Source: Clostridiales bacterium (GTDB taxonomy: Bacteria; Bacillota_A; Clostridia; Oscillospirales; Oscillospiraceae). Taken from it: a DNA stretch of 18,467 bases. The notes beneath the pieces are model-generated. The model did no database searches. It was not told the DNA's origin and saw only the letters and a list, made by a program, of their open reading frames with translations. Position 1 is the first letter of the stretch; each line of letters opens with the position of its first letter. This document shows, in pieces, positions 3,175 to 17,833 of the stretch. The translations under genes were made by a program, and so were the position numbers. The DNA lies in contig DXUR01000018.1 in assembly GCA_019417795.1 (NCBI GenBank), positions 1 to 18,467 on the forward strand, given 5' to 3'.

Positions 3175-3548
3175 TCCCGTTGATAGTACCCCGATACCAA
3201 CAAGTACAGTCCGCATGGATACTATGAAAGGCATTTGCCTAAATTCCGCCTCTGACATTCCCAATAGTTTTGATATTAATATCATGGGATCTACAAACAT
3301 TGCAGATGTGGATGGTTCCTCGTTGCAGGGATTGGAAATACATGCCATGGGTGGAAACAAAGAAGATTTATCCCAAATCTTTTGATAGATCGGCAGAGAA
3401 ATATCTGGGCCGATGATGGCTGGGCGCTTATGGGAGATGTACAGAGACGATGACAAATAGACGCACAAGGCGGGAACATCTTCAATGATGTTCCCGCCTC
3501 TACTATTATAAGTGTTGCGATAGAAAACCATCGCCTTTTTCGTTCCTC
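3175..3548. other. Intergenic debris without a convincing gene
   Basis: Open frames exist on both strands here (one on the minus strand from 3582 to 3073, one on the plus strand from 3104 to 3385), but neither has a ribosome site or a recognisable family, and the minus-strand frame runs through a perfect terminator-like hairpin. The only clear structure is that hairpin at 3469-3498. Confidence 0.5.
3469..3498 (-). terminator. Terminator hairpin after the DUF3990 pair
   Basis: A perfect 12-bp inverted repeat (3469-3480 with 3487-3498) with a 6-base loop lies 50 bp beyond the stop codon of the minus-strand gene ending at 3549. It would end the two-gene DUF3990 transcript. The following T-rich tract is weak. 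Confidence 0.6.
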
Positions 3549-3995
3549 TCAACCGTCCAGGACCGTTTTCTGCCGGTAGCACTCCGCAATATAATCGCGG
3601 GGCTGATAATAGAAGGCAGCATTATAGTCCGAAAGCAGACTGTCGATCCAGGAGGTAAAGACCTGTAAGATGGTTTCTACGATGTTGTCCTCATCGGACA
3701 CATCCTCGATGAGCCTTGCATAGACCTTTCCCATCGTCCACACATCGGGGACTGTATATCTTGCCTCGGCAAGATTGTCAAAATTCCCGCCTTGCAGTGA
3801 AAATTCCGTGATCACATCGTCCGCGACCTTTTCGATCGGCTCACAGTGCAGAATGTCTGCATTGCGGTAGAGCGTCTGAATGCCGGCCTCGCCCAGTTCC
3901 GCAGCCACCTTACCGCGCCGCATGTGAAGGGAGCGGCCAAGCTGTTCGATCAGAGAACAGGTGAAAAAGAGCGCGTCATTGTTTCTCTTGCACAT
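3549..3995 (-). CDS. DUF3990-partner protein (DUF3791-like), putative antidote
   Basis: The 148-aa product starts MCKRNNDALFFTCSLIEQLG and contains GEAGIQTLYRNADILHCEPI, a middle NFDNLAEARYTVPDVWTMGK and a terminal SWIDSLLSDYNAAFYY. I know this combination as the small helical protein regularly found next to DUF3990 genes in Firmicutes, sometimes annotated with a DUF3791 domain. The start at 3995 was chosen because AAAGGAG lies about ten bases upstream and family members begin close to the ALFFTCSLIE segment; an ATG at 4004 is too near the ribosome site. The beginning overlaps the end of the DUF3990 gene by about 20 bp, so the two are translationally coupled. A role as inhibitor of the neighbour is inferred from this fixed pairing only. 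Confidence 0.65.
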   Translation of the reverse strand: MCKRNNDALFFTCSLIEQLGRSLHMRRGKVAAELGEAGIQTLYRNADILHCEPIEKVADDVITEFSLQGGNFDNLAEARYTVPDVWTMGKVYARLIEDVSDEDNIVETILQVFTSWIDSLLSDYNAAFYYQPRDYIAECYRQKTVLDG

Positions 3996-4449
3996 TGGCG
4001 ACATAGCTCCTTTCAAATTTCAGTGCAGCGAGAGCACGTGCAGTGTGGAAGCTGATCTGATGGGTGGGATACTTGAATTTTGCCAATTCCCAGAAAGCAG
4101 CTCTGGAGATCTCACCATCCAAAAAGCTCTGCACATAATTGAAGATGGTATCGTCCGCCATCGGGCCTTCCACCACATCATAGTCATGGGGAACTCCATT
4201 CCGGCATGCCGCAATAAAATCCAACCATTCATCGCTCATTTCCGGAAAGCGCTTGATCTTGAGCTCGGTCTGGTCATCGAAGGAATAGACATTGACAACC
4301 CCGGCTTTTCCAAAGCGCGTTGCCCAGCGCAGCGCCTGCTGTTCATAGGAGGTGCAGTAAAAGCCCCAGTAAAAATCCTTATGGAATTTTTGAATGCGGA
4401 TCTCGGGTTGTTCCACAACCACTCTGCTTCCATGGTAAAGAGTCTGCAT
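3976..4449 (-). CDS. DUF3990 protein, ADP-ribosyltransferase-like fold
   Basis: The 157-aa protein begins MQTLYHGSRVVVEQPEIRI and continues with KDFYWGFYCTSYEQQALRWA and GVVNVYSFD. The N-terminal LYHGS, the K-DF-WGFY-T segment and the EQA-type helix are the hallmarks of DUF3990, a family placed to my knowledge in the ADP-ribosyltransferase clan, where the early His and the GFY-T strand would hold NAD. If active it would modify a protein or nucleic acid; the target is unknown. The ATG at 4449 has AAGGAGG six bases upstream. A complete promoter precedes it, separate from the operon to its right, and a partner gene overlaps its end. Length is normal for the family, so it appears intact. Confidence 0.75.
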   Translation of the reverse strand: MQTLYHGSRVVVEQPEIRIQKFHKDFYWGFYCTSYEQQALRWATRFGKAGVVNVYSFDDQTELKIKRFPEMSDEWLDFIAACRNGVPHDYDVVEGPMADDTIFNYVQSFLDGEISRAAFWELAKFKYPTHQISFHTARALAALKFERSYVANVQEKQ

Positions 4450-4481
4450 AACCGTCCTCCTTCATCTTTATATTTTATAAT

Positions 4482-4510
4482 ATTATAGCCTGTTTCCTTT
4501 CTGCGCGCAA
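4482..4510 (-). promoter_or_regulatory. Promoter of the DUF3990 pair
   Basis: On the minus strand TTGCGC (4505-4510) and TATAAT (4482-4487) are separated by exactly 17 bp, a near-consensus housekeeping promoter. It begins just seven bases before the stop codon region of the VWA gene, giving the DUF3990 pair its own transcript in addition to any read-through. Confidence 0.7.
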
Positions 4511-4516
4511 CCAATA

Positions 4517-6103
4517 TCATACGCGATCCAACACAATTTCCCCGACGATCTGATCCCCGGTCAGTTCACTGGTACGGTAAATATTCTGGCAAAAGGGTTT
4601 CAGGCTGAAATCCATGTCGGCGTTTCCCTCATCCAGCAGAATCCCTGTGACGGTGAAGCGAAGCTCTGATTGCGCCTTTTGCAGTGCCTCTACACAGGTT
4701 TCTGGCAGTGAACACTCACCGTCCGTAATAAACGCGATGTCAGCATTTTCAAAGCCGCCCTCCCGCATGAGGCGTTCTGCCTCCGCAAGCGGCGTTTGAA
4801 AATCCGTGCCTCCGCCCAAGAAGGTTTCCGCCGCGCGCAGCTTCTCTTCAAGAGAAGACTGCCCGGGAAGAAATACATCCGTTTGAAAGCGGCCGGGGCC
4901 GGAAAAATGAACAAGAGCGAATTTTCGTCCCTCGCTCTGCGCAATCTCCAGCAGCGTCATGGCGACAGCTTTACCCCACGCGGCCAGATCTCCCGCAGTG
5001 GAGCCGGATTCGTCCAGGCAGCATATGATATCACCTGCGCCCTTATAGACCGGCTCCCGCCGGCGGTATTGCTTAATCTGCCGGTGCTGATACTTCCGCA
5101 GGAACAACGGCAGCGTTTCCGGCACAGCAAGCATGGCAAGCTCGGAGGTCAGTGCGCGAGATAGATCATTTCCCAGCTCCAATGCATATTTTTCTCCGCG
5201 GCCATAGGCATAGCCATTGCGCTTGCCCTGCGCGAAAATTTCCCGGAAACGCCCCAGATAGCGGGAAATGTCCCGCAACGTTTTACTATCGCGCACACGC
5301 TCTAAAAGCGCCGCATTCGCGTCTGTCTTCCGCATATCACCGGGGGCGTCGCTCCATGCGCCGAGGATCGTCTGTACTTCTTCCGCCCTTTCCGCGGCAG
5401 CAGACACCGCGCGGGCGATCAGCGCACCGGCTTCTGCCTGATTCTGCGCAAGGCCAGCGTCAACGAGCTTATTGACCGCATCTGCCTGCCGCCGTTTGCT
5501 CTCGGCGTCATTAGCGGCTTTTACCACAGCGGCACTCAGAGCCGGATCGTCCTGTGGAGTCCCACGAAGCTGCTCCAGCAGTGCCGCGAGCTTGTCCTCT
5601 GCGGTTTTCTCTGCCTGCTCCAGCTTTTCCAGCGTCTGCACAGCGCCAGGTTTTCCACCTAATTGGGAAAGTAAGTTATCCAATTCTCCCGAGGTCTGGG
5701 CAGTAAACTCTGCCGCTGCTTCATAGGCCGGAAGCTCCCGCCCTTCACACACCGCCTTGAGCGTAGGATAGTCTTCGCTTTGAGTGATGTGCTCCAGAAT
5801 TGGCACGTTGATCTTCCGCGCCGCCGCTGAAAGATCATCTTCTGTGTTGCGCCGGGGCATCAGGGAATAAAAGGACTGGAAAATATCCCGCGAGAGCGCC
5901 GGAAAAGAGCGCAGCTTTTCGCCTGCGCTGTTCTCGATCTCGTCCATACCTGTATCCTCCATGCGCAGATCTCGGTAAATGCTATCCTCCAGTTTGGTGG
6001 AACGCAGCACGCGGTCTGTCTGCTGTGAACTGCTTTTTGCTCTCTGCACCTGCGCCCACGGAGAGGAAAGAACATCCTGAACCGTCCGGTAGGGCTTCAG
6101 CAT
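4517..6103 (-). CDS. ViaA-like VWA-domain protein
   Basis: The 528-aa protein has a C-terminal von Willebrand factor A domain with an intact metal-ion-dependent adhesion site: DESGS at 364-368, Thr433 in GGGTDF, and Asp461 in ITDGE. The N-terminal 340 residues are helical, with a long alanine/glutamate-rich coiled coil at about 150-250. Helical N-terminus plus C-terminal VWA, with a RavA-like MoxR ATPase in the same operon, is the architecture of ViaA, which binds RavA and stimulates its ATPase (E. coli ViaA is about 480 aa). The ATG at 6103 overlaps the upstream small gene by 7 bp and has GGGAGAG upstream. It is the last gene of the long operon. It probably brings client proteins to the ATPase; the client is unknown but the operon suggests a DNA-bound complex. 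Confidence 0.8.
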   Translation of the reverse strand: MLKPYRTVQDVLSSPWAQVQRAKSSSQQTDRVLRSTKLEDSIYRDLRMEDTGMDEIENSAGEKLRSFPALSRDIFQSFYSLMPRRNTEDDLSAAARKINVPILEHITQSEDYPTLKAVCEGRELPAYEAAAEFTAQTSGELDNLLSQLGGKPGAVQTLEKLEQAEKTAEDKLAALLEQLRGTPQDDPALSAAVVKAANDAESKRRQADAVNKLVDAGLAQNQAEAGALIARAVSAAAERAEEVQTILGAWSDAPGDMRKTDANAALLERVRDSKTLRDISRYLGRFREIFAQGKRNGYAYGRGEKYALELGNDLSRALTSELAMLAVPETLPLFLRKYQHRQIKQYRRREPVYKGAGDIICCLDESGSTAGDLAAWGKAVAMTLLEIAQSEGRKFALVHFSGPGRFQTDVFLPGQSSLEEKLRAAETFLGGGTDFQTPLAEAERLMREGGFENADIAFITDGECSLPETCVEALQKAQSELRFTVTGILLDEGNADMDFSLKPFCQNIYRTSELTGDQIVGEIVLDRV

Positions 6104-6315
6104 TTCTCATTCTCTCCCTTCTCAAATGTGCCAAACCACGCCAGCAGGATCTCTTTTGCCCGTTCCGGCGCATATCGCAGCTCCGGAAATTCTTCCTGCA
6201 AGTATGGTGCAGCTCCGTACATATTGGTTTCGCCGCTTTGACGCAGCCGTTCCAGATAGTCAAAATACTTCTGGCATTCATTCTTGGAATAGGTGCTAAG
6301 AATACTCATTTCCAT
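6097..6315 (-). CDS. Small unknown protein upstream of the VWA gene
   Basis: A 72-aa protein reading MEMSILSTYSKNECQKYFDY, then GETNMYGAAPYLQEEFPELR and EILLAWFGTFEKGENEKC. It looks like a compact, soluble three-helix protein. The ATG at 6315 has GGGGAG eight bases upstream; its end overlaps the VWA start by 7 bp, implying translational coupling. I have a sense of similar short proteins in other clostridial elements, but I cannot name a family. It may be an adaptor for the VWA/MoxR pair, on position alone. Confidence 0.65.
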   Translation of the reverse strand: MEMSILSTYSKNECQKYFDYLERLRQSGETNMYGAAPYLQEEFPELRYAPERAKEILLAWFGTFEKGENEKC

Positions 6316-6345
6316 ATAAAACGCTCCCCAATCAATGCGAGTTTG

Positions 6346-6699
6346 TCACTTACCATCCGCAAGATCGTCTTTGGTGAGTTCAAAGTCATCCAGCCAGTCT
6401 ACATCGTCCCGTTCGACAAAAGTAGATCCGTCCTCGTCTGAGAGTGCGCGATCATACGCACGCATCAGGGCGAAGTGGTTTTCGTCACCCAATTCTTCTC
6501 CCTGTTTGCCGCCCCGGAAACGATACTGCTGGACGGCGATCCTTGCGTCGCTGCTCACTGCGTCCCACATGTCGCGGAAGGGCTGGTCGTGCTTCAAAAG
6601 CTCGCGGATATCAAATTCATCCAAACAGCCACCCTCCATAAAGGAAAGCTCCACGCCATCACGGTCTTCGATCCGTACTTCCGTAAAAACAATGCTCAT
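6346..6699 (-). CDS. Acidic unknown protein (117 aa)
   Basis: A very acidic 117-aa product beginning MSIVFTEVRIEDRDGVELSF and ending with DWLDDFELTKDDLADGK. It has no signal peptide, membrane segment or recognisable motif. The ATG at 6699 is preceded by AGAGGAG with eight bases of spacing, and it lies 30 bp before the next gene of the operon, so translation is credible. The high Asp/Glu content is reminiscent of small DNA-mimic or adaptor proteins, but that is speculation. Confidence 0.6.
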   Translation of the reverse strand: MSIVFTEVRIEDRDGVELSFMEGGCLDEFDIRELLKHDQPFRDMWDAVSSDARIAVQQYRFRGGKQGEELGDENHFALMRAYDRALSDEDGSTFVERDDVDWLDDFELTKDDLADGK

Positions 6700-6727
6700 T
6701 TTGTTTTCTCCTCTTATCTTTTATATG

Positions 6728-6751
6728 GAGGGAGGGCTGATGCCCTCCCTC
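6728..6751 (-). terminator. Hairpin between SSB and the next operon gene
   Basis: A perfect 10-bp inverted repeat (6728-6737 with 6742-6751) with a 4-base loop lies 16 bp after the SSB stop. No T tract follows on the minus strand; it is more likely a partial terminator or mRNA-stabilising hairpin that sets relative expression within the operon. Confidence 0.45.
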
Positions 6752-6766
6752 GCTTATTTGGTGCTC

Positions 6767-7204
6767 TTAAAAGGGCATTTCCCCGGATTCGCCGCCAAAG
6801 TCCGGTGTAAAGCCGTCCGGCACGGCAAAGCTGTCGGGCGCTCCGGTATAGGCAGGAACATCATCTTCCTCACCGCCGTCTTTCGGCTTGGAATCTCCGA
6901 AGTAGACATTGTCTGCAATGACTTCGGCACTGCGGCGCTTGCCGCCTTCCTTATCCGTCCAGTCGCGGATTTGGAGTCGGCCCTCCACAACGGCCATGCG
7001 GCCTTTTGCGAAATACTTGCTCACAAACTCCGCTGTGGCGCGCCAGGCAACGATATCAATAAAGTCCGTCTCTTTTTCCCCGTTTTTGGACTTGAAGTCC
7101 CGATCCACCGCGATTGAAAACGAACAAACGGCGGTACCGCTCTCCGTCCTGCGCAGTTCGGGATCGCGCGTGAGTCTTCCCATAAGAATGATCTTGTTCA
7201 GCAT
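6767..7204 (-). CDS. ssb: Single-stranded DNA-binding protein
   Basis: The 145-aa product starts MLNKIILMGRLTRDPELRRT and carries the classic SSB OB fold through about residue 105 (SGTAVCSFSIAVDRDF, VAWRATAEFVSKYFAKG, VVEGRLQIRDW), followed by a flexible acidic and glycine-rich tail ending in GESGEMPF. The terminal MPF corresponds to the conserved acidic-Pro-Phe tip with which SSB recruits helicases and repair proteins, although it has only one acidic residue next to it where housekeeping SSBs usually have two. It coats single-stranded DNA as a tetramer. TTGGAGG lies seven bases before the ATG. As part of this operon it is an element-borne copy, presumably acting with the helicase and the clamp paralogue. 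Confidence 0.93.
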   Translation of the reverse strand: MLNKIILMGRLTRDPELRRTESGTAVCSFSIAVDRDFKSKNGEKETDFIDIVAWRATAEFVSKYFAKGRMAVVEGRLQIRDWTDKEGGKRRSAEVIADNVYFGDSKPKDGGEEDDVPAYTGAPDSFAVPDGFTPDFGGESGEMPF

Positions 7205-7224
7205 CGTGATTCCTCCAATATTTT

Positions 7225-8598
7225 TTAATTTAACGCTGCGATCTCTTCCAGCGTCGTATAAGTAAAATGTGTCTGCTCGTGGGCCTTGCGGCTGATCTTC
7301 TCCAAATCGGCCAAGAGGTCATCCACCAGCGCAATCTCGCTGTCAGACTGCGCCGCCGTGCGAAGGCTGCACTGCATCTGATAAAGATGCGTCAATTCAC
7401 CGCGCAGCTTGATAAATGCCTTGCGCGCAGTATCGGCCTTGCTGCCATCCCCCAGCGCGGCGTCAAATTCCTCCTGGGATTCCAACGCCATACCGCGGAT
7501 ATTGTTGACCTTATCCTGCATGGGGTTGACGCACAGGCGGGTGAGCACCGCTTCCACCTTTTCACGGTCTGAGGGCAGGTGCCAGAGATAATTCTTCAGC
7601 GCCAGAAGGTCACAGGATTCTACCTTGTCATGGCCGGAAAGCCATGCCTTGGCCTGCGCGATGGGATAATAGCCCAGATACTTTCGGTCCGACACCGCCA
7701 TATCCTTACGAAGCTCGCAGAGGATATCGTCAGCCAACTCGTTGATGGCGTCGGGAACGGGGATCGACGCGACCTCCTGCTGCATTTGCTGCAATTCCTC
7801 CAACGTGATTGTGGCGGAGATCTGTCCGAAGGCGCCGGTTTGCTTATTCTTCAAAACGGCAAGGCGCGTGTCCCGATCCTCCATATTGGCCGTCACGACC
7901 TTCATCTCCAGGCGGTCGTACAGCGCCTCCAGTATCTTTTCCTGCGGGTCATTGAAATTAGGGATCTCATTGGAGGCCGCAAAGAAAGAAATGACCGGAA
8001 TGGGATAGGTGCGTCCCTCGTTGGTGTATTTCCGCTCATTGAGGGCGGTGAGCAGTGAGTTCAGCACGCCGTCGTTGCACTTGAAGATCTCATCCAGCAA
8101 TACGATATCGGCCTCTGGAATTTTGCCGGCTGTCTGCACCGCGGGCTCGCTTTTGTGAAGCGCCGATAGCGCTGCACGATAAAGCTCCAGCTTTTCGGTG
8201 CCGCTCTTGAGCTTTTCCCATGTTGCGGGCTCGTCCTTCATGGAGCCGATGCCCTCGACGAGGACACGCAGGTTGAAGCGCTGGTTTTGATAGGTTGCGT
8301 CCTGCTCCAGCACGGTCGGCGGCACAGAGCCCGGCAGCAGACTCGCAAGATCAACACGGCCGAAAAGCTGTTCTTCATCGCTCTGCTTGGAAAGAAGCCG
8401 CTCAAACTGCCGCGCACCGGTGATGTGCCGACGGAACAGGTTGATGGCATAGCTCTTGGCCTGTCCCGGCTCACCCAGAACAAACAGGTTTTTTCGCGTC
8501 AGCAGGGCAATGGCGATCATCTCCACCAATTCCTCCCGCTCAGCTACGCTATCATTGGTATCCGCAATGACCGCCAGCATCTTATCTCTCAGCGTCAT
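7225..8598 (-). CDS. RavA-like MoxR AAA+ ATPase
   Basis: The 457-aa protein is a MoxR-family AAA+ ATPase. Walker A is GEPGQAKS (42-49), Walker B IVLLDE (165-170), sensor 1 is the Asn in AASNE (about 210), and the arginine finger lies in ALYDRLEMKV (about 229). The segment from Walker B onward (LDEIFK, LLTALNERKYTN, EALYDRL) strongly resembles RavA. Between the 5-prime end of the ATPase core and Walker B there is an extra stretch (about 95-160) longer than in ordinary MoxR proteins. The C-terminal 220 residues are helical. Its VWA partner is encoded three genes downstream, as in the ravA-viaA system. AAGGAGG stands seven bases before the ATG. It forms a hexameric remodelling motor; the client is not known. 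Confidence 0.88.
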   Translation of the reverse strand: MTLRDKMLAVIADTNDSVAEREELVEMIAIALLTRKNLFVLGEPGQAKSYAINLFRRHITGARQFERLLSKQSDEEQLFGRVDLASLLPGSVPPTVLEQDATYQNQRFNLRVLVEGIGSMKDEPATWEKLKSGTEKLELYRAALSALHKSEPAVQTAGKIPEADIVLLDEIFKCNDGVLNSLLTALNERKYTNEGRTYPIPVISFFAASNEIPNFNDPQEKILEALYDRLEMKVVTANMEDRDTRLAVLKNKQTGAFGQISATITLEELQQMQQEVASIPVPDAINELADDILCELRKDMAVSDRKYLGYYPIAQAKAWLSGHDKVESCDLLALKNYLWHLPSDREKVEAVLTRLCVNPMQDKVNNIRGMALESQEEFDAALGDGSKADTARKAFIKLRGELTHLYQMQCSLRTAAQSDSEIALVDDLLADLEKISRKAHEQTHFTYTTLEEIAALN

Positions 8599-8610
8599 TT
8601 CCGTGCCTCC

Positions 8611-8970
8611 TTACGCCGCCAGCGTCTCTTCATAGAGGCCGCTGTTCTCAGAGAGCGTATCGATGGAAATGATATGGCTCTTTCGGAACGAGTGCGGTGT
8701 ACCGGTCATACCGCAGAGCCGGTAGGCCGATTTGCAGCTAAGAAGCTCATACTTGAGCTGGGCGAAAATGTGCTGCTCCAGGCGTCCCTTTTCCGGGTCA
8801 TAGCCCGCCACAGCCTTGATAAGCCGCAGGGCAAGCTGCTGGTACACATCGTCATATTCCAGCCGAGCCGCTCTCATGAGCGGGCGATTCTGACGGATCA
8901 CGCTATCGATGCACCAAAGATTCGCTTCCACAATGGCGTTGCGCTGAGCGATTGAGTAATTATTTTTCAT
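8611..8970 (-). CDS. Sigma-70 region 2-like protein without region 4
   Basis: This 119-aa product reads RNAIVEANLWCIDSVIRQNR, then YDDVYQQLALRLIKAVAGYD and EKGRLEQHIFAQLKYELLSC. The order of a long helix, an acidic DDVYQ motif and a basic helix corresponds to region 2 of sigma-70 factors, which binds core RNA polymerase and the -10 box. The usual region 4 helix-turn-helix is absent; the last 35 residues are unlike it. It may be a minimal sigma or a polymerase-binding regulator of the element. AGAGGAAGG precedes the ATG at 8970, and the start overlaps the upstream gene by 11 bp, so the two are coupled. The match is by pattern, not alignment. Confidence 0.6.
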   Translation of the reverse strand: MKNNYSIAQRNAIVEANLWCIDSVIRQNRPLMRAARLEYDDVYQQLALRLIKAVAGYDPEKGRLEQHIFAQLKYELLSCKSAYRLCGMTGTPHSFRKSHIISIDTLSENSGLYEETLAA

Positions 8971-9169
8971 TGTCGTTTCCTTCCTCTGGTATGGGCGCCC
9001 AAAAGCGGCAGTGGCCTTGGTCCCAGTCCTCCAGCAACATTTTGGTGGTGTAGTTCACGGAATTATAGTTCTTGTTTCTACAGTACTGCGTTTTTGCCAT
9101 CGGTCCGCGATTGCTCGGCAGATCATAGGAATATCGGCAGTTACTGCAGCTTTTTGCAGTTTCCTTCAA
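8960..9169 (-). CDS. Small four-cysteine protein, zinc-ribbon-like
   Basis: A 69-aa protein with cysteines at 8, 11, 30 and 54 (SCSNCRYSY, QYCRNKNY, GHCRFWAP), a spacing suited to binding one zinc ion. The start is the TTG at 9169: GGAGG sits seven bases upstream inside the previous gene, and TTGA overlaps that gene's TGA stop, a coupling signal. It ends 11 bp inside the sigma-like gene. The family is not known to me; it could contact DNA or protein through its zinc site. Confidence 0.6.
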   Translation of the reverse strand: MKETAKSCSNCRYSYDLPSNRGPMAKTQYCRNKNYNSVNYTTKMLLEDWDQGHCRFWAPIPEEGNDNEK

Positions 9170-9699
9170 TCAATTTCCTCCATGATATTCTTCTTGGCAG
9201 TCTTGGCATCAAACGAGAATAAAAGCTCATAGCCATGCTCCGTTTTGTAGAAAAAGGCAGGCTTGATACCGTCGTCGATTTCCACAACATCGTAGTGCTG
9301 GACTGCTGCACCCAAAATCTCATCATCCGATTTTTCATTGCAGCACTCGAAAAACTCATACGGTGCCAGATCGGTATGTCCTTCATAGCGCACCGCATAG
9401 CGGAATGCAGATGGAGAAGTATCCTCGCCCAGATACGCGCACATACTGCGGTGCATCCTCCATTCTCTTTGATTCTTGAAGCCATAGATCCGCAGCTCAC
9501 AGGGAGTCTTGAGCCTGGGACACCAGCTTGGCACATAGGTTTTGGGATCACTGCATTTGAATTTCCTCGCGCGCTTTCCCGCAACACAGAAACGCTCCCC
9601 CAAGTGCATGGTGACGCCTTTTTTCTTGATCGGCAAGCTTTCCATGTATTGGAGATTATGTGGGCAATCAGAGCAGTTCGGTTTTCGCAGCAGCATCAT
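9166..9699 (-). CDS. Cysteine-cluster unknown protein (177 aa)
   Basis: The product starts MMLLRKPNCSDCPHNLQYME and has six cysteines in its first 70 residues (9, 12, 38, 49, 60, 67), followed by a mixed alpha/beta region with RYEGHTDLAPYEFFECCNEK and GYELLFSFDAKTAKKNIMEE. The start at 9699 is favoured because AAGGAGG lies eight bases upstream; the open frame extends 64 codons further only because it shadows the upstream gene. The first 32 bp overlap the end of that gene. The six early cysteines could bind zinc or an iron-sulfur cluster. No family recognised. Confidence 0.6.
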   Translation of the reverse strand: MMLLRKPNCSDCPHNLQYMESLPIKKKGVTMHLGERFCVAGKRARKFKCSDPKTYVPSWCPRLKTPCELRIYGFKNQREWRMHRSMCAYLGEDTSPSAFRYAVRYEGHTDLAPYEFFECCNEKSDDEILGAAVQHYDVVEIDDGIKPAFFYKTEHGYELLFSFDAKTAKKNIMEEID

Positions 9700-10432
9700 C
9701 AGCCGCACCTCCTTTTTCTTCGATATTTTCTGCGTACAGCGGACTTTCGATGATCTCATAGCGGGTAAACCATCCGGCGGCATAGCCGTCCCGGTAAGCC
9801 TCCCAGAAATTCTCGCCGTACTCCTCACAGTATTCTTCTGCCGGAAACGGGATCGTCCGACTTTCCTTTTCCTCCGCCACAAGGCGCGCAAGCTCCTTGC
9901 GGGCCTCCTCCTTCACAGTGAAGGCTGCCATACCTTCCGGAGCAGGAAAATTGCCCTGATCCGCATCCGCCCAGGAGTGGACGATGGTATAGACTCTCTT
10001 CGCATTTCCGCAGATCATGGCATGGATCGACTGGTTTTCCGGCGTGCTCAGCCAGTCCTCAACAGCGGCGCGATCCTCCTTACGGAACATCTCTACAAAC
10101 TTTGTGCGAAACGCCGCGCGAGGCAAGCACTGACCGATGGAGCGGTGAAAATGGTATAAATGCCGGTATACCGCAGCAAGGAAACCGTCAGTGCTATCCG
10201 CCTCAACGGGCCTTTGCTCCATGCACAGCCGCCCGCCGCAGATCCTGCATTTCCCGACCAGACACAGCTGATAGGGCTTTATCTCCTTCAGACTGTTGTA
10301 GGTCAGGCTCCATTGGACTTTCTCCATGTTCTCCGCCAAATGCGCGGCCATTCCAAGGGCGTCCCTGCAAGCGACCGGCGGACACGAGCAAAGTCTCTCA
10401 TGCTCATGCCGGCAATATGTTCTCTCACACAT
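9668..10432 (-). CDS. Cysteine-rich unknown protein (254 aa)
   Basis: The 254-aa protein begins MCERTYCRHEHERLCSCPPV and has two Cys groups: 2, 7, 15, 17, 22 and then 57, 62, 65, 70 (LVGKCRICGGRLC). The rest is soluble and mainly helical, with an aromatic-rich stretch YCEEYGENFWEAYRDGYAAG and an acidic tail that overlaps the next gene. The ATG follows directly on the TAA of the preceding gene, with AAGGAG nine bases before it. The CxxC pairs suggest zinc binding. I do not recognise the family; its position between a zinc-finger protein and other Cys-rich products suggests a nucleic-acid role, which is inference. Confidence 0.6.
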   Translation of the reverse strand: MCERTYCRHEHERLCSCPPVACRDALGMAAHLAENMEKVQWSLTYNSLKEIKPYQLCLVGKCRICGGRLCMEQRPVEADSTDGFLAAVYRHLYHFHRSIGQCLPRAAFRTKFVEMFRKEDRAAVEDWLSTPENQSIHAMICGNAKRVYTIVHSWADADQGNFPAPEGMAAFTVKEEARKELARLVAEEKESRTIPFPAEEYCEEYGENFWEAYRDGYAAGWFTRYEIIESPLYAENIEEKGGAADDAAAKTELL

Positions 10433-10852
10433 TTATGCTGTCTCCTTCTTTTTCTCTTTGTTTCGTTCCTTTTCGCATAGCCGGATCAGCTTCTGGCACC
10501 GATCCATCTCAAAGCCTCCGATGTGGGCAAGCTCTTCAGAGAGCCTCAGCTTCTTTGCCATCCACTTATAGCCCTGCGTTCTGCTCATTCCCCGCTCCTT
10601 CCAGAAGCTGTCAAAGACCTGATGGGTCTCCATCCGCTTCATGCGAAGAGCTTCGTTGGCAAGATTGCCCAGCGGCCGCGTGCTGCCCTTATGACAGCCC
10701 ACACGGGCATTGCAGTTTTGACATTGATAAAATTTCTCACGTTCCAAGCCCAGTCGTTTTGCCGCCGCGGGACCATACACCTTTGCCGCGGGAACAAGAT
10801 GGACTGCGCCGCCGCAATAGCGGCAGATCGTTGGAATCTCTACCAAAGGCAT
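10433..10852 (-). CDS. Zinc-finger-containing protein, DUF3268 family
   Basis: The 139-aa protein has an N-terminal zinc site, C10-x2-C13 in TICRYCGGAVHLV and C44-x2-C47 in YQCQNCNARVGCHKGS, followed by PLGNLANEALRMKRMETHQVFDSFWKE. The VGCHKGSTRPLGNLAN segment is diagnostic for the DUF3268 zinc-finger family as I know it, found in phages and conjugative elements. Its role is not established, though nucleic-acid binding is likely. The start is not settled: the ATG at 10852 is only one base from GGAGG, while a TTG two codons later (10846) has the proper seven-base spacing; both give nearly the same protein. It starts 6 bp after the clamp gene and ends directly at the next start. Confidence 0.8.
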   Translation of the reverse strand: MPLVEIPTICRYCGGAVHLVPAAKVYGPAAAKRLGLEREKFYQCQNCNARVGCHKGSTRPLGNLANEALRMKRMETHQVFDSFWKERGMSRTQGYKWMAKKLRLSEELAHIGGFEMDRCQKLIRLCEKERNKEKKKETA

Positions 10853-10858
10853 CCCTCC

Positions 10859-11992
10859 TTACGCCGCTTTCGCAGCAGCCGGCTGCGCGGCTTTTTGAGT
10901 TTTCTTCTGTGCTTCCGGCCGCATGCCGTTTTGCAGATAGTAGGCGTCCTGCGTGGCAAGCGTCAGCATTCCGCCCTGCGCGATCCCCAGCGTGACTGTC
11001 CCGCTCAAGGCTTTCAGGCAGGTGACAAGCTGCTTTGCGTTGAACCAGTAATCTCCCGCAGGGGTGCCGGTCAATGCAATTACCTCAATGGGCGCCGATG
11101 CGCTGACGCAATCGCCTGTGCATTGGAATACAAGGCGCTGATCCTGAAAGCTCAGCTTTACCCGGTTTCCGGTGCCAATGCTTAGGACGGACGAGAGCGC
11201 CGCTCTCATGTCGTGAATATCCGTCAGCACGGTAAACGCATTCCGGATGCTGCCTACCAACTGATCCGTATCGATGTAGCCGCCCTCCATGAGCCGCGCG
11301 CTGAAGAGGAAGTTCTCGCGGAAAAAGACGATGCTCTTTCCTGTGGTGCCGACGCGGAATTCATCCTTGTCCTGGCACATATTTGAGAGCTTTCCAAGCG
11401 AGGCGGCGGGGATGAGCAGGCTCACATCACCCGTGCTCTGATTGTCGCCTCTGGCTGTCACGATACAGTTTCCGTTGCTGCCGGCCGCGCGCAGTCCCGT
11501 GTTGGTAAACATGAGATTGACGCACTTGAGAAGCGGCTTGCTGTTATCCTGTGCGGTTGCAAATACGGTGTGCTGCGCCATAGCGGGAATCCCGCTGAGT
11601 TTGACGGTATCCTCCGGGAAAGGAAGATCCGGCTTTGGAAAAGCGCCTCGCTCCCATACATCCACTTCATAGCAGGCGTCTCCGCTTCTGAGCGTCATGC
11701 GTCCCTGATTTTCTGCCCGACAGAGCTGCACGGTATCCTGCGGCAGCCGTGAGAGCATTTCTGCAAGCATCTTCGCTCCAAATACCAGCGCCCCATTCTC
11801 CTGAACGGCACAGGGGAGCTTTTCCTCCAGTGCCGCTTCCAGATTAGTCGAGGTGACGGTGAGCTTTCCTGCGGCGGCATCTGCCTCCAGCAAAACGCCG
11901 CGGAGCACATCCAAGGGCGAATCTGCCGGTGCGATGGCTGATGCACGCTTGATGGCGCTCAACATTTCCGCCCGATTGATCGTTACATTCAA
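10859..11992 (-). CDS. dnaN-like: DnaN-like sliding clamp paralogue
   Basis: From a TTG at 11992 (AGGAGG seven bases upstream) this frame gives a 377-aa protein, the length of a DNA polymerase III beta subunit. It shows three similar beta-rich repeats beginning with VTINRAEMLSAIKRAS, then GKLTVTSTNLEAALEEKLPC and VFGAKMLAEMLSRLPQD, a middle TGLRAAGSNGNCIVTARG, and near the end the clamp-like QDAYYLQNGMRP. An alanine/lysine-rich tail of about 20 residues follows. The clamp is a dimeric ring that tethers polymerases and other proteins to DNA. No polymerase gene is in the window, so this copy may recruit a host polymerase or serve the helicase. The open frame also extends upstream of 11992, but that part is a shadow of the helicase gene. 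Confidence 0.85.
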   Translation of the reverse strand: MNVTINRAEMLSAIKRASAIAPADSPLDVLRGVLLEADAAAGKLTVTSTNLEAALEEKLPCAVQENGALVFGAKMLAEMLSRLPQDTVQLCRAENQGRMTLRSGDACYEVDVWERGAFPKPDLPFPEDTVKLSGIPAMAQHTVFATAQDNSKPLLKCVNLMFTNTGLRAAGSNGNCIVTARGDNQSTGDVSLLIPAASLGKLSNMCQDKDEFRVGTTGKSIVFFRENFLFSARLMEGGYIDTDQLVGSIRNAFTVLTDIHDMRAALSSVLSIGTGNRVKLSFQDQRLVFQCTGDCVSASAPIEVIALTGTPAGDYWFNAKQLVTCLKALSGTVTLGIAQGGMLTLATQDAYYLQNGMRPEAQKKTQKAAQPAAAKAA

Positions 11993-12005
11993 ATAATCTC
12001 CTCCT

Positions 12006-15000
12006 TTACGCAGCAAAGCCGAAGATCGACAGCTGGTTTTCATCCACCTCTGCCTTCTTCGACTTCCGTTTCTTCTGTTCTTCCGCAGTTCTGGCAAGCA
12101 GCCCTTCATAGAGTGCCTGACGCACTTGCGCCTGCGCCGTGCGCACGCCGAAGGAATCCTTTGCTGCGGGCGCCTTTTGTTCTTCTGCCGCAGTATCTTT
12201 CGGCTGTGCAGCGGTAATGTTCTTTTTCCGCTCCGGGTTAATGACCGCCATTTTCCGAAAGGCCGCCGCAATATCCTCCACATTATCCCGGATCCCAAGC
12301 GCCAGCTCCTTTGCCATCTGTGAGGTCAGATCCTTTACATCGCTCATAGCCGCAAGGCCCTCTTCAGAAAATGTACCCTCGATGATGCCTGCCACCGCCA
12401 ATTTGGATGCCATCAGCTTCATGGCCTTTGCCTGCATGGTATCGGCGTAGTAGAGCATATATACCTCCACTCTGGGGGCGGTCTGATTGATCCGCCACGA
12501 CCGGCGGGATGCCTGCCGCAGCGTAAAGAGGTTATAGCCCATGGAGTAGAAGATAATGGTGGTAAAGGCATTGAGGTCAAGGCCGGTTTCCACGCAGCGC
12601 GGGTTGGTGATGAGCACCTGCAAACCGTTCTTGACATGCTTGTTGACCCAGTCCTCCCGCTTATCCGTAGCGATCTGCGGCGTCAGGATCTCTGTCCGAT
12701 AACCTTCCGAGCAAAGAAGCTTCTGGAGCTTTTTCTGTGAATCCGTGCGCGTCCAACTGGTATAGATGAGCACGCGCTCTCCGTTTGCCGCCTTCTGCCG
12801 CACCAGCTCCAATACCCGTTCCTCCTTGGGAAGCAGACGGGAAAAATCGCCGCAGTTCTTTGGCGTTACAATGGGCATTCCGTTTATGGGATGCACTACC
12901 TCCGCTTGATCGTAGGGCTGGTCCGGGTAGACCGTCAGCAAATTGAGATAGGTGGACAGAATCTTCTGCGCCGCCTTTCGGTCTGTGCGCAGGACTTTCT
13001 GCAATTCGTGTTCCGCCTCTTTATAGGCCGCGCGTACATCCTCCGGCATCTCCAGCGGTACGGGGATCTCTTCGTAGTCCGGCAGGTCTTTGCCCATGTC
13101 GGAGAGGGAGAGAAATGCCGTGTATTCCAGCAGGAAACGGGAAAATACCAGCGGCGATACGCCGGGCAGCTGCTTTGACTTTGTTCTGCGCTTACTGGTA
13201 CGCCGGTTGGAATTGTACTCCGCATCCTGTATCTCATAGGTATTTTCCACCACGCCGTACTCCGCATCGAAATCGCCGGGGCTTTTGTAGCGTTTGCCAT
13301 CCTTGAGCATCAGCCCGGGGACGATACGGTAGAGCAGGTGAAAAATGCCGGAGGAATAGCCGTTGATAAGCGTTGCCGTCATTCCGACAAAACACCTGGA
13401 CGCGCCGTACAGCTCTGCCATGGCATCGCCCTGCCCGCTATTGTTGTTGTACTCGTGCAGCTCATCGCAGAGGAAGCCGTCGATGCGCCCGCGCAGCTTT
13501 TTCTTGATGTAGGTACTCAGGGGAAACCGCCGGTGCGCTCCGCGGATCGGGTAGAATGCATCCGGATTTTGGGCGATCTCAGTGAGCTGATCGAGAACAC
13601 GCTCGTTTTTGGTACGATGCAGATGTGCCTGCGCGCCGTAGCGGTAGACCCATCCGTATTCTCCGATCTTCACCCAGTCGATCCGTTTGTCCGGATTGAC
13701 CGCAGACCATAGCGGCATACCGCAATGGGGACAGATGTGATTTTTCTTGTGCTCCTTCTGAAAAAAGAACTGGTCGGCCGGCACCGTATAGCGGCTGCCG
13801 TCCTCGCTGATCTCCATTTCGATCACACCGTCACAGTCTGGGCAGAGAAACGCGCGTCTGCGTCGATTCCAACGCACGGCGGGGTAACGCATATAGCCAT
13901 CCCGCGCCTGCTCCTTGGAAAAAACAGCGAATACGCTTTTGTCGCCCTTCTCGTACATCGCATATAGACGGTTGAGATCCTGAATCGTGCGCACCACCAT
14001 GCCGTAGGTATCCGGGAGCGTTTCTCCAATCTCCCGCACCCACTTTTGTGTGACATGGGAGGGACACATGACGATGCCGAAGGATTTCCTGCCGCCTTTC
14101 CTCTTCTGATCGGCCCACAGCCCGTGCAAAGCGCCAAGAGCAGTCGAACCGATCTTCGTCTTGCCGCTACCGCATTCTGCGATAATGAGCGCCACACGCT
14201 TACGCGCAAGCTGCCGTTTGACAGCCTCTGCTACCGCAAGCTGGGCATCGTAGAGGGAATATCCCACACGGCTCATGATGCAGTCGTTGATAGCGAGCAC
14301 TTCATCGGAAAGCGGTTCCTTGGCAGGATCAAAAAGGGGCATGAACTGATTGCGGATACGGTCAGCTACGGTAACACCAAAGGTATTGAGATAGCCTGTG
14401 ACATTTTCCACATTCTCAAATCCGTCTGGGCTGCCCAGCAAGGTGCCGGGGATCTGGATGGCTCCGCTCTGCAAGCCCTGCTCCAGCACCTCCACCACAT
14501 TCTGATCCTGCGGCTTCAGATCCAGCACCCATGCGTCCATCCGCTCTTTCAGGGAAATGACCTCCAGTTGCCGGAGATCTCCCCGTTGGCGCAGACTGCT
14601 GAGCACATAATCCTGAAATTCCGGGATCAGCGGCGCTGCCGTTTTGCGATCCAGTTCCTCAAAGAGCCGCTTTTGATCCCCGGCAGGGCAGAAGATATAG
14701 CACCTGCGGGGCTGCAACTCCATCTGCTCCGTATCTACGAGGTTTGTATCCTCGTCTTTTTCATGCTTGCCGCTTCTGTCATCCTCCTGTACGGTGTCCG
14801 CAGCCATCAATGTTGCCACGGCGTAGATCCCATCGTGCGTGATCTGCCGCTGATAACTTTTGAGGCTACTTTGGAGCATTCGGGTCGTGTCGTTTTGGGC
14901 GGCTTCTATCGTCGCGCCGCCGTAGATGGCATCTGCCATTGCCCGCACCATTTCGGGATAGCCGCCGAAGCGGATGGCACTGATGATGCTGCCGTTTTGA

Positions 15001-15095
15001 TCGTGGTCGAGTACCAGCGTATCCGCATAGGCCGACAAGCGCACCTGTGCGGATGGGTCATAGTAACTCAGCTCGATCAGCTTACTATTGGACAT
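12006..15095 (-). CDS. Large SF2 (SNF2/DEAD-like) helicase with zinc finger
   Basis: A 1029-aa helicase. Motif I is AECGSGKT at 306-313, motif II DELH at 544-547, motif III TAT at 573-575; the second RecA-like domain starts around LIYTSWTR (776) and has a GLDL (838) and motif VI QASRRSWRINQ (861-871). A four-Cys zinc knuckle, CPDC (418) and CPHC (455), is inserted between motifs I and II. The first 290 residues are an unrecognised domain. The arrangement resembles SNF2-type ATP-driven DNA translocases of mobile elements. The start at 15095 has AAAGGAG eleven bases upstream. The same frame is open to an ATG at 15272 with a stronger ribosome site, separated by an intrinsic terminator, so a 1088-aa form with a 59-residue extension is also possible. 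It is the first gene of the island operon. Confidence 0.85.
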   Translation of the reverse strand: MSNSKLIELSYYDPSAQVRLSAYADTLVLDHDQNGSIISAIRFGGYPEMVRAMADAIYGGATIEAAQNDTTRMLQSSLKSYQRQITHDGIYAVATLMAADTVQEDDRSGKHEKDEDTNLVDTEQMELQPRRCYIFCPAGDQKRLFEELDRKTAAPLIPEFQDYVLSSLRQRGDLRQLEVISLKERMDAWVLDLKPQDQNVVEVLEQGLQSGAIQIPGTLLGSPDGFENVENVTGYLNTFGVTVADRIRNQFMPLFDPAKEPLSDEVLAINDCIMSRVGYSLYDAQLAVAEAVKRQLARKRVALIIAECGSGKTKIGSTALGALHGLWADQKRKGGRKSFGIVMCPSHVTQKWVREIGETLPDTYGMVVRTIQDLNRLYAMYEKGDKSVFAVFSKEQARDGYMRYPAVRWNRRRRAFLCPDCDGVIEMEISEDGSRYTVPADQFFFQKEHKKNHICPHCGMPLWSAVNPDKRIDWVKIGEYGWVYRYGAQAHLHRTKNERVLDQLTEIAQNPDAFYPIRGAHRRFPLSTYIKKKLRGRIDGFLCDELHEYNNNSGQGDAMAELYGASRCFVGMTATLINGYSSGIFHLLYRIVPGLMLKDGKRYKSPGDFDAEYGVVENTYEIQDAEYNSNRRTSKRRTKSKQLPGVSPLVFSRFLLEYTAFLSLSDMGKDLPDYEEIPVPLEMPEDVRAAYKEAEHELQKVLRTDRKAAQKILSTYLNLLTVYPDQPYDQAEVVHPINGMPIVTPKNCGDFSRLLPKEERVLELVRQKAANGERVLIYTSWTRTDSQKKLQKLLCSEGYRTEILTPQIATDKREDWVNKHVKNGLQVLITNPRCVETGLDLNAFTTIIFYSMGYNLFTLRQASRRSWRINQTAPRVEVYMLYYADTMQAKAMKLMASKLAVAGIIEGTFSEEGLAAMSDVKDLTSQMAKELALGIRDNVEDIAAAFRKMAVINPERKKNITAAQPKDTAAEEQKAPAAKDSFGVRTAQAQVRQALYEGLLARTAEEQKKRKSKKAEVDENQLSIFGFAA

Positions 15096-15272
15096 CCATT
15101 GCCTGACTCCTTTCTTTTGACGAAACAAAAAAAGACCGCAATCACTCCTATGAGCAATTACGGTTTCGTTCTCGTCCTTATTACATTTCAAGTCGTTTGG
15201 GTTCGACGGTACTCGCAAGGAGCATGCCACATCTCTAAGCGGTAAAACCTCCATGAGCTGTGCAAAGGGCAT
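15096..15272 (-). promoter_or_regulatory. Leader ORF in frame with the helicase
   Basis: An ATG at 15272 follows AAAGGAGG four bases upstream, the best ribosome site in the region, and begins a frame (MPFAQLMEVLPLRDVACSLR) that continues without a stop into the helicase. The intrinsic terminator at 15127-15164 lies inside it, coding for ETVIAHRSDCGLFLF. It can be read as a leader whose translation would open the terminator hairpin, or as a true N-terminal extension of the helicase. The 15272 start and in-frame reading are seen; the control role is inferred. Confidence 0.5.
15127..15164 (-). terminator. Intrinsic terminator upstream of the helicase
   Basis: On the minus strand a 13-bp stem (10 Watson-Crick and 3 G-U pairs; 15152-15164 with 15135-15147) with a 4-base loop is followed by a run of seven T (15127-15133). 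This is a textbook intrinsic terminator pointing toward the helicase start 32 bp further on. An outer CGAAAC/GTTTCG pairing could form an alternative structure. Confidence 0.75.
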
Positions 15273-15298
15273 ACTACCTCCTTTCCACTCTTTCTTTC

Positions 15299-15328
15299 CT
15301 AACTTACTCCGCCCTAACTTACTTCGCC
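15299..15328. repeat. Tandem 15-bp direct repeat in the operon leader
   Basis: Two adjacent copies of a 15-mer (15299-15313 and 15314-15328) differ at one position. They lie in the untranslated leader between the promoter at 15344-15372 and the ribosome site before 15272, so they could bind a regulator on DNA or RNA. Confidence 0.6.
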
Positions 15329-15341
15329 CTGAAATACAGCT

Positions 15342-15437
15342 TCATTGTAGCATCACAGGGGAAGGCTGTATAGTTGGAGTTTTTCCATAGTTTCTATGCT
15401 GATTCGAGATCCATTCCATATCAACGAGCACATACAT
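15342..15437 (-). pseudogene. N-terminal remnant of an exonuclease-like gene
   Basis: A 31-codon ORF with GGAGG eight bases before its ATG reads MYVLVDMEWISNQHRN and continues for 15 more residues to a stop. The VLVDMEW opening matches the first beta strand of DnaQ/RNase H-like 3'-5' exonucleases, where the Asp binds the catalytic metal; full-length proteins are many times longer. The remaining residues do not continue that fold, so the rest of the gene was probably deleted or the ORF was recycled as the helicase promoter region. Confidence 0.45.
15344..15372 (-). promoter_or_regulatory. Promoter of the helicase operon
   Basis: On the minus strand TATACA (15367-15372) and TACAAT (15344-15349) are 17 bp apart, four and five matches to the consensus. 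It overlaps the 3-prime half of the small exonuclease remnant and would start transcription about 65 bp before the strong ribosome site. Confidence 0.5.
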
Positions 15438-17466: not shown

Positions 17467-17833
17467 AAACGAGAATCGCAAGCAAAGGATCCGCGAGGCG
17501 TTCCATGATGGGAAACAGGTAGAGCGAATGCCTGCCCGAGAGGACATGGCTCCTCAGCATTCCGACGATGTTATCTATCGGGTTGCTCCGTACTGCCGAG
17601 TCAGTACGATGTCCGAAATGCAGGCAGAGAGTTTTGAAATCCAGCAACAGTACTACAACGAGTACATTGCCAAGCACCCGAATTGGACGCTGGTTCGCAT
17701 CTATGCCGATGAAGGCATCTCAGCAACTTCGGTGAATAACCGCAAGCCTCTGTATTTTTCATCCCGTTATCGGATAAGCGTTACAGCGGCTTTTGAAAAC
17801 TCTGTATTGATTTTTCTGCGCGAGGTGATATAA
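17450..17833 (+). pseudogene. Serine recombinase truncated after its catalytic domain
   Basis: A TTG at 17450 with AAGGAAGGAG nine bases upstream starts a protein with a 45-residue leader and then the serine recombinase motif VAPYCRVST (Arg50, Ser52 catalytic), SFEIQQQYYNEYIAKHPNWT and YADEGISATSVNNRK. Large serine recombinases of this class, which excise and integrate clostridial elements, normally run to several hundred residues with a zinc-ribbon and DNA-binding domains. Here the familiar sequence ends at residue 99 (about 17746) and 28 unrelated residues lead to a stop. The lost part would have followed the catalytic domain, so the protein should be inactive alone. The change-over lies just before the DUF134 promoter. 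Confidence 0.7.

What the first reader, a model, noticed from the sequence alone, without database searches (positions are those of the whole stretch)
4517..15095. RavA/ViaA-like pair inside a helicase-clamp-SSB operon
A MoxR ATPase with RavA-like motifs (Walker A at 42-49 of the 7225-8598 product) and a VWA protein with intact MIDAS sit in one tightly spaced minus-strand run with an SF2 helicase, a DnaN-like clamp, an SSB, a sigma-region-2 protein and several zinc-type proteins. RavA-ViaA is known as a chaperone/remodelling couple, and vWA-MoxR pairs occur in bacterial conflict systems, but linkage to a clamp and helicase is not a standard arrangement as far as I know. A plausible reading is an element-borne system that loads, remodels or removes clamp or helicase complexes, for replication of the element or for attacking other DNA.
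Basis: partly seen in the sequence, partly recalled or inferred. Interest (0 to 1): 0.75.

Follow-up and report, generated by a model that had tools for sequence, protein, structure and literature searches.

The report
Mobile-element DNA toolkit with disposal tags
A family of mobile genetic elements in Clostridia carries a fixed set of DNA-handling genes (a DNA motor, a sliding clamp, an SSB and an ATPase-plus-partner remodelling pair), and several unrelated proteins of these elements end in the same two-residue tail that bacteria are known to use to mark proteins for destruction.

Summary
In detail: VWA, SSB, MoxR, a sub-threshold sigma-like protein, a zinc protein, a DnaN-like clamp and an SF2 (SNF2-like) motor form one tightly spaced minus-strand run (4517-15095) with intact Walker A and MIDAS. 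The linkage is specific: 52 remote MoxR loci (51 with VWA) show the motor in none, clamp and SSB in one. The elements also carry conjugation, RepA_N, Rad52 and ThiF/E2 genes. Two facts go beyond the finding. The motor ends in a clamp-binding-like motif (114 of 120 listed relatives). Clamp, sigma-like, zinc, Rad52, SbcC-like, primase-like, ThiF and other proteins end in -AA (146 of 202 in eleven families; 3 of 274 in seventeen others; 1 of 117 host-side ORFs), an SsrA-like ClpXP degron signature. Best reading: a pulsed replication/repair module whose motor rides its own clamp. What MoxR-VWA remodels is inferred, not shown.

The parts
3441..15397 (-). 12-kb block shared at 96.7% identity with G001, where it lies inside a larger element with conjugation genes; in the window its flanks differ from G001
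   Evidence: blastn
15344..15372 (-). promoter-like site with TG before the second hexamer, start of the leader
   Evidence: consensus scan, (3 found, 3.5 expected by chance, so weak alone); the sequence is repeated upstream of both operons in G001
15303..15330 (-). tandem leader repeat AGGGCG[G/A]AGTAAG
15127..15164 (-). intrinsic terminator in the leader, between promoter-like site and motor gene; predicted attenuator
   Evidence: pair counts over 19 hairpins
12006..15095 (-). SNF2-like SF2 motor, 1029 aa, with Cys-rich insert
12021..12035 (-). QLSIF, clamp-binding-like motif at residues 1021-1025 of the motor, followed by GFAA
10859..11992 (-). DnaN-like sliding clamp, 377 aa, with tail ending KAA (the 479-aa ORF is over-long)
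10433..10852 (-). DUF3268 zinc-finger protein (this copy ends TA)
9668..10432 (-). Cys-rich protein of unknown family, 254 aa
9166..9699 (-). Cys-rich protein, about 177 aa (start uncertain)
8960..9169 (-). small Cys-rich protein, 69 aa
8611..8970 (-). sigma-region-2-like protein, 119 aa, ends TLAA
   Evidence: (below cut-off)
7225..8598 (-). MoxR-family AAA+ ATPase, Walker A 42-49
6767..7204 (-). SSB, tail ends MPF
6346..6699 (-). protein of 117 aa, unknown
6097..6315 (-). protein of 72 aa, unknown
4517..6103 (-). VWA protein: mostly helical N-terminal part, C-terminal VWA domain with intact MIDAS, ends RV

Best explanation
This is operon 1 of the DNA-processing equipment of a family of mobile elements with conjugation genes in Clostridia. 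A SNF2-type dsDNA motor is tied through a C-terminal clamp-binding motif to a DnaN-like clamp made by the element, and acts on element DNA together with the element's SSB and the operon-2 Rad52-like annealer, SbcC-like ATPase and primase-like protein (replication, second-strand synthesis or fork repair around transfer). The MoxR-VWA pair is the element's own remodelling chaperone, working as NorQ-NorD does, with the motor/clamp assembly as its most likely client. The element makes this machinery in pulses: operon 1, and in several elements operon 2 too, starts with a leader holding a terminator (attenuation), and many DNA-acting products carry a C-terminal -AA degron that should hand them to host ClpXP. 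Shown by sequence: gene set, order, specificity, clamp-binding-like motif, -AA enrichment, leader. Inferred: clamp binding, client of MoxR-VWA, degradation, and the timing.
For: Co-occurrence in 391 genomes: motor in 6, VWA in 4, MoxR in 4; the 4 with MoxR are the 4 with VWA and have all three on one contig within about 11 kb; the two motor-only cases are a motor at a contig end (G294) and a remnant of about 79 residues (G259). Order kept in 18 of 21 two-flank loci. Clamp-binding-like motif in the last 14 residues: 114 of 120 listed motors (of 1324), 3 of 6000 shuffles; first Gln invariant in 20 of 20 aligned motors. -AA: clamps 118 of 120 listed (of 394); motors AA or VA 120 of 120 listed; sigma-like 108 of 120 listed (of 645); 146 of 202 in eleven families vs 3 of 274 in seventeen others and 1 of 117 host-side ORFs, with varied codons. 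Host DnaN in 6 of 6 genomes ends at LPVRL plus 0-4 residues, none in AA. Host tmRNA tags end AA in 4 of 4 read (2 more were not read, the nearest genome G001 among them); ClpX over cut-off in 5 of 6 genomes. Ala-Ala-COO- is the key ClpXP element (PMC7652416, passages). Element context.
Against: No protein contact or degradation was tested. No DNA polymerase or clamp loader was seen among the element proteins scanned, so host enzymes would have to serve. No relaxase was identified, so conjugation is inferred from VirB4/VirD4. One of the 4 co-occurring genomes, G122, has the motor split over two frames and a TAG inside MoxR. L079 has motor and clamp but a truncated MoxR and no SSB or VWA in 9.7 kb; L073 lacks VWA, L041 lacks the motor in the flank held. 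Six of 120 motors read QFSIAGF instead of the motif, four GTDB loci QFTLDGF. The motor's -AA is weaker in diverged elements (14 AA plus 17 other xA of 44). The tag/non-tag split of families was made after seeing the tails. The listed database relatives are the closest ones, many nearly alike. The motor model is of middling quality (pLDDT 69.6).
Confidence: 0.5

Rival explanations
1. MoxR-VWA is itself the reader of the -AA tails: a private unfoldase that extracts tagged clamp, motor, sigma-like and repair proteins from DNA or from each other, like ClpX but belonging to the element.
For: Tagged and untagged families split: MoxR 0 of 53, VWA 0 of 38, SSB 0 of 45 are untagged while many DNA-acting proteins are tagged; the pair is in the same run.
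Against: In NorQ-NorD the VWA finger fills the pore and force is proposed to act on the NorD linker, not on a threaded client tail (PMC13036017, passages). Host ClpX is known to read -AA. Sigma-like tails ending ALAA look like SsrA itself.
Confidence: 0.12
2. MoxR-VWA matures another element protein (for example of the T4SS or a metal enzyme) and is only co-inherited with motor and clamp.
For: Known MoxR-VWA pairs serve varied clients (NorQD, RavA-ViaA; abstract starts); remote relatives keep VWA (51 of 52 loci) without the motor, and with clamp and SSB in one.
Against: In 18 of 21 two-flank loci MoxR, SSB and VWA follow the clamp, on the far side of the motor from the T4SS genes, which in G001 end about 6 kb upstream of the motor.
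Confidence: 0.22
3. A conflict system: motor, clamp and MoxR-VWA attack or block competing DNA.
For: MoxR hits the ternary-system MoxR model PF20030; the motor has weak hits to ZorD, DpdE, DrmD.
Against: No beta-propeller or nuclease family over cut-off in the run; no PADLOC hit for MoxR, VWA, clamp or sigma-like protein; the setting is conjugation and replication genes.
Confidence: 0.08
4. The -AA tails are handled by the element's own ThiF E1 / E2 / JAB-like enzymes (C-terminal conjugation), not by a protease.
For: ThiF, Prok-E2_D and JAB-like genes lie in operon 2 of the same elements.
Against: ThiF itself is tagged in 10 of 15; many different substrates would be needed; I identified no Ub-like protein, though none was searched for.
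Confidence: 0.05

Closest known systems
NorQ-NorD (MoxR AAA+ with VWA partner)
   Same: MoxR plus C-terminal VWA with MIDAS; NorD VWA domains in NorQD complexes are Foldseek ranks 2, 4, 8 and 10 for the VWA model; the VWA C-terminus is R[VIL] in 24 of 38, and NorD's C-terminus contacts NorQ
   Different: genes sit with clamp, SNF2-like motor and SSB, not with nitric oxide reductase; a human VWA domain ranks first, so the match shows the VWA fold, not kinship
RavA-ViaA
   Same: MoxR core 149-351 aligns to RavA 94-296 (E 1e-43); VWA region matches ViaA profile 260-444
   Different: far below both equivalog cut-offs; match confined to the AAA core; mobile-element setting
PCNA-binding SNF2 fork remodellers (HLTF, SHPRH; ZRANB3 recalled)
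   Same: a SNF2 motor that binds a sliding clamp (HLTF/SHPRH-PCNA: title and abstract start; the short peptide is recalled)
   Different: bacterial DnaN-type clamp and motif, element-borne; analogy, not kinship
PRTRC cassette
   Same: PRTRC_A-like JAB, PRTRC_B-like E2 and ThiF in operon 2
   Different: below PRTRC curated cut-offs; MoxR, clamp and motor are not part of PRTRC as I recall it
SsrA-type ClpXP degrons
   Same: C-terminal Ala-Ala; sigma-like proteins end ALAA, TLAA or MAA
   Different: encoded in the genes of several unrelated proteins of one element rather than added by tmRNA

Membership tests
MoxR AAA+ ATPase | AAA core with Walker A/B and MoxR-type lid | tested here: met
   PF20030, PF07728, PF17868 over cut-off; Walker A pattern in 50 of 53, Walker B pattern in 49 of 53
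RavA | NCBIfam RavA equivalog cut-off | tested here: not met
   143.6 of 681 bits
ViaA | NCBIfam ViaA equivalog cut-off | tested here: not met
   52.5 of 500 bits
MoxR-VWA pair | VWA partner with intact MIDAS near MoxR | tested here: met
   MIDAS invariant in 30 of 30; VWA in 27 of 30 loci with 6 kb downstream held, misses L073, L079, L085
MoxR-VWA-beta-propeller/VMAP conflict system | third component in the run | tested here: not met
   no beta-propeller Pfam hit in the run; VMAP itself was not searched by a model of its own
Bacterial sliding clamp | beta-clamp domains | tested here: met
   PF00712, PF02767 over cut-off, third domain below; PDB clamps, best E 2e-50
Housekeeping DnaN | TIGR00663 equivalog cut-off and LPVRL end | tested here: not met
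   91.6 of 137.65 bits (one relative, G108, reaches 142.7); tail differs
SNF2 motor | SNF2 family domain and fold | tested here: inconclusive
   the 50 listed PDB matches are SNF2-type entries as far as titles tell, best E 5e-13, but Pfam SNF2-rel_dom is below cut-off and the model is middling
Clamp-binding protein | binds the clamp pocket | not testable with these tools
   motif conserved, binding untested
ClpXP C-degron | C-terminal Ala-Ala | tested here: met
ClpXP C-degron | ClpX-dependent turnover | not testable with these tools
   needs experiment
Integrative conjugative element | T4SS ATPases and coupling protein | tested here: met
   VirD4 NF045973 337 bits, cut-off 250; T4SS-DNA_transf and TraG P-loop over cut-off
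Integrative conjugative element | relaxase and proven transfer | tested here: inconclusive
   no relaxase among the proteins scanned, search not exhaustive; transfer not testable
PRTRC | PRTRC_A and PRTRC_B curated cut-offs | tested here: not met
   51.4 of 101.8; 25.8 of 131.45

The most novel reading that the evidence does not exclude
The element runs an encoded C-terminal tag code: a set of unrelated DNA-acting proteins (clamps, SNF2-like motor, sigma-like factor, annealer, SbcC-like ATPase, primase-like protein, E1) carry a gene-encoded -AA tail so that one AAA+ machine, host ClpXP or the element's own MoxR-VWA, clears or disassembles the whole transfer-replication apparatus at once.
Probability: 0.4. 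Interest if true: 0.88.

Novelty: new variant of a known kind. Interest (0 to 1): 0.74.

Why it matters
MoxR-VWA pairs are widespread chaperones with few known clients; this family, common in metagenomes (a motor cluster of up to 5286 members), ties one to a clamp, a motor and an SSB, which names testable clients. A gene-encoded degron shared by many unrelated proteins of one element would be a simple way for mobile DNA to make a burst of replication enzymes and then remove them, sparing the host. Element clamps with a tether on a SNF2-like motor also give a bacterial parallel to PCNA-bound fork remodellers.

Tried and rejected
Rejected: -AA as a codon or Shine-Dalgarno by-product (twelve codon pairs and all three stops in clamps, varied distance to the next gene). 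Thought unlikely: a virion-assembly role as proposed for jumbo phages (PMC7824862, passages), since the near relatives examined at length sit with T4SS genes. Leader as a known RNA family: 0 Rfam matches at gathering threshold in the window. Led nowhere: Listeria plasmid and Moorella phage relatives; with 50 viral loci they show VWA in 51 of 52 but the motor in none and clamp and SSB in one, L136.

Counts and rows dropped: families left out of the tag/non-tag sums, with AA of rows: ParA 0/2, ParB 0/1, orf29 0/3, orf60 1/1, orf63 0/3, orf64 0/2, orf66 1/1, orf71 0/1, p120 1/1, p126 1/1, and 'clamp2', which mixes both clamps (separated 8 second clamps: 7 AA, 1 VA). The 48 'clamp' rows include two second clamps (L045, L047). 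One SVAR ORF counts under both VirB4 and VirD4. Background ORFs are greedy calls of 150 aa or more; some are surely not genes. In one search some contigs stand twice. Shared upstream repeats: 6 of 10 elements compared (one of only 23 bp), none in L050, G108, G208, G122. A hairpin before a T-run was found for 33 of 44 motor rows, three of them at unlikely places (L056, L070, L074), many of the rest lacking upstream DNA; the 19 hairpins were chosen by hand from those, near type only, and had been picked by predicted stability, so the pairing percentage leans to the structure. The VIA-align list is filled by other VWA domains; NorD is not among its 50 rows, so the NorD likeness rests on Foldseek. 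The N-terminal part of VWA was not tested alone. No clamp model was made.

Literature: searched; no listed title or abstract start described this cluster or the -AA tails; most subscription papers are not held. Passages seen: PMC10910872, PMC7159879, PMC7824862, PMC7652416, PMC8138137, PMC13036017. All others only as search listings. ZRANB3, the PRTRC definition, the clamp-binding consensus and the meaning of the SSB tail are recalled.
Full report
What is there. Family scans confirm VWA, SSB, MoxR, DUF3268, a DnaN-like clamp and an SF2 motor; the sigma-region-2 match is below cut-off. The clamp ORF of 479 aa is over-long; homology places its start at 11992, giving 377 aa.

What it belongs to. 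The window's assembly is not held; the nearest genome, G001, shares 12 kb (3441-15397) at 96.7%. In G001 this block is operon 1 of an element with ParA and ParB, VirB4- and VirD4-like ATPases, RepA_N, an S1-like protein and, farther right, a serine recombinase. Operon 2 there encodes a JAB-like protein (below cut-off), ThiF, a second clamp, a DUF6094 methyltransferase, Prok-E2_D, Rad52, an SbcC-like ATPase and a primase-like protein (below cut-off). The Subdoligranulum record OY725881, G032 and G122 show both operons with VirB4, VirD4 and RepA_N; G108 and G208 show both operons, the rest not being in the stretch held. In the window the block has other flanks, so operon 1 can stand in other contexts.

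Is the linkage real? Two tests. First, loci found by MoxR (48 GTDB loci and others; 53 sources with a MoxR ORF): clamp in 37 of 39 with at least 4.5 kb upstream held (misses L035, L085), motor in 29 of 32 with 8 kb (misses L086, L041, L085), SSB in 40 of 43 with 2.5 kb downstream (misses L035, L079, L085), VWA in 27 of 30 with 6 kb (misses L073, L079, L085). Of 21 with both flanks, 18 have all in the same order; the others are L086 (stretch starts inside the clamp), L079 (motor and clamp present, MoxR truncated, no SSB or VWA) and L085 (remnant). Some sources, perhaps L070 and G108, may be near-same; two plain duplicates were taken out. Second, not chosen by MoxR: 391 class-wide genomes gave motor in 6, VWA in 4, MoxR in 4; the 4 with MoxR are the 4 with VWA, and all have the motor on the same contig within about 11 kb, though in G122 the motor is split over two frames and MoxR holds a TAG. 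Conversely 52 loci with remote MoxR (50 viral contigs, a Listeria plasmid, a Moorella phage) have VWA in 51, motor in 0, clamp and SSB in 1. The set is a property of this element family.

The motor and the clamp. The motor model's 50 listed PDB matches are SNF2-type remodellers as far as titles tell (CHD4, Sth1, INO80, Mot1, CSB, RapA; model pLDDT 69.6), so it is more likely a dsDNA translocase than an unwinding helicase. Its linker before the end varies, but the last 14 residues hold Q[LIMF]x[LIMF]F in 114 of 120 listed relatives of 1324 (QLSIF 74, QLSLF 20); shuffling gave 3 of 6000; the six others read QFSIAGF. The first Gln is invariant in 20 of 20 aligned motors down to 46% identity. Of 964 ORFs of 100 aa or more in the held loci, 39 have such a motif in the last 14 residues; 36 are in the motor cluster, one more is a motor fragment (L084), and two are unidentified proteins between the DUF3268 and sigma-like genes. 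The pattern is the bacterial clamp-binding consensus as I recall it.

The -AA tails. The clamp adds a Lys-rich tail ending KAA: AA in 46 and VA in 2 of 48 rows, AA in 118 of the 120 closest database relatives of 394, the two exceptions being clamp-MoxR fusion ORFs. Host DnaN in six genomes ends at LPVRL plus 0-4 residues, never AA. The second clamp keeps a PVR-type end in 7 of 8 and adds a short tail: 7 AA, 1 VA. The sigma-like protein ends AA in 108 of 120 listed of 645, most often ALAA, 48. Over families: clamp 46/48, sigma-like 21/25, DUF3268 22/32, Rad52 6/6, SbcC-like 5/6, primase-like 4/6, ThiF 10/15, DUF6744 7/8, two unknown families 6/7 and 5/5, motor 14/44 (17 more end in another residue plus A): 146 of 202. 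Without tag: VWA 0/38, SSB 0/45, MoxR 0/53, S1-like 0/14, RepA_N 0/10, E2 0/6, methyltransferase 0/8, JAB-like 2/14, T4SS 0/22 and four others: together 3 of 274. Host-side ORFs of the same records: 1 of 117. The grouping was made after looking, and small families were left out (listed under Tried and rejected), but the per-family contrasts are extreme (clamp p 3e-37). Codons and stops vary, so the peptide is selected. Ala-Ala-COO- is the main ClpXP signal (PMC7652416, passages); cleaved RseA ends VAA, and CtrA's listed degron ends NAA though the table calls it N-terminal (PMC8138137). Host tmRNA tags end AA in 4 of 4 that ARAGORN read; 2 of 6, G001 and G016, were not read. ClpX reaches the cut-off in 5 of 6 genomes, not in G016.

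Regulation. Upstream of the motor lies a leader: promoter-like site, tandem AGGGCGGAGTAAG repeats and an intrinsic terminator before the gene. A copy stands before operon 2 in G001 (287 bp, 96%), and shared repeats were found in 6 of 10 elements compared. Nineteen terminator stems align with 92.1% of cells paired, 9 of 14 pairs with changes on both sides, 0 of 500 shuffles as high; the stems had been picked by predicted stability. This points to attenuation control; the regulator is unknown.

MoxR-VWA. The VWA model (pLDDT 84.5) has a mostly helical N-terminal part and a C-terminal VWA domain; NorD VWA domains bound to NorQ are Foldseek ranks 2, 4, 8 and 10, a human VWA domain rank 1. In NorQD a VWA finger enters the AAA pore and the NorD C-terminus touches NorQ (PMC13036017, passages); here the VWA C-terminus is R[VIL] in 24 of 38. 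So the pair most likely works as other MoxR-VWA pairs do; motor, clamp or SSB as client is inferred from position alone.

Verdict. The most surprising result is the shared degron-like tail.

Noticed in passing
window 3549-4449 (-): DUF3791/DUF3990 overlapping pair after the VWA gene; DUF3990 matches PADLOC candidate PDC-M10A (E 7e-78). Each was found in only 4 rows over the held loci, so cargo rather than part of the set.
   Followed up: partly
G001 concatenate of L021-L025, 55043-56140; 8 sources: A second DnaN-like clamp in operon 2; elements with two clamps raise the question of a mixed clamp ring.
   Followed up: partly
window 15106-15391; G001 concatenate 38875-39162 and 52667-52951: The leader is a direct repeat flanking operon 1 in G001; recombination between copies could excise or move operon 1 alone, which may explain the window's different flanks.
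   Followed up: partly
proteins P0003 and P0079: Clamp ORFs that end with MoxR's C-terminus, apparent in-frame deletions or assembly joins between the two genes.
   Followed up: no
L038, L039, L040, L042, L043: One lineage has QFTLDGFAA or QFSIAGFAA in place of the clamp-binding-like motif but keeps -AA; a natural test of whether motor and clamp still cooperate.
   Followed up: no
L035, L079, L085: Decayed or partial MoxR copies; L085 comes from the same assembly as the fuller locus L042.
   Followed up: no
window 17125-17833 (+): ORF 17125-17466 has a Resolvase hit; the overlapping ORF 17354-17833 was not scanned and looks like another piece of a serine recombinase.
   Followed up: no
OY725881.1 (L138-L141): Record named a plasmid, but by eye much of its 167,780 bases looks like chromosomal genes; it may be a chromosome piece carrying the element. 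Not tested.
   Followed up: no
L051 8557-9327, L054 6097-6906 (+): Two unidentified operon proteins that also end in a clamp-binding-like motif plus AA.
   Followed up: no
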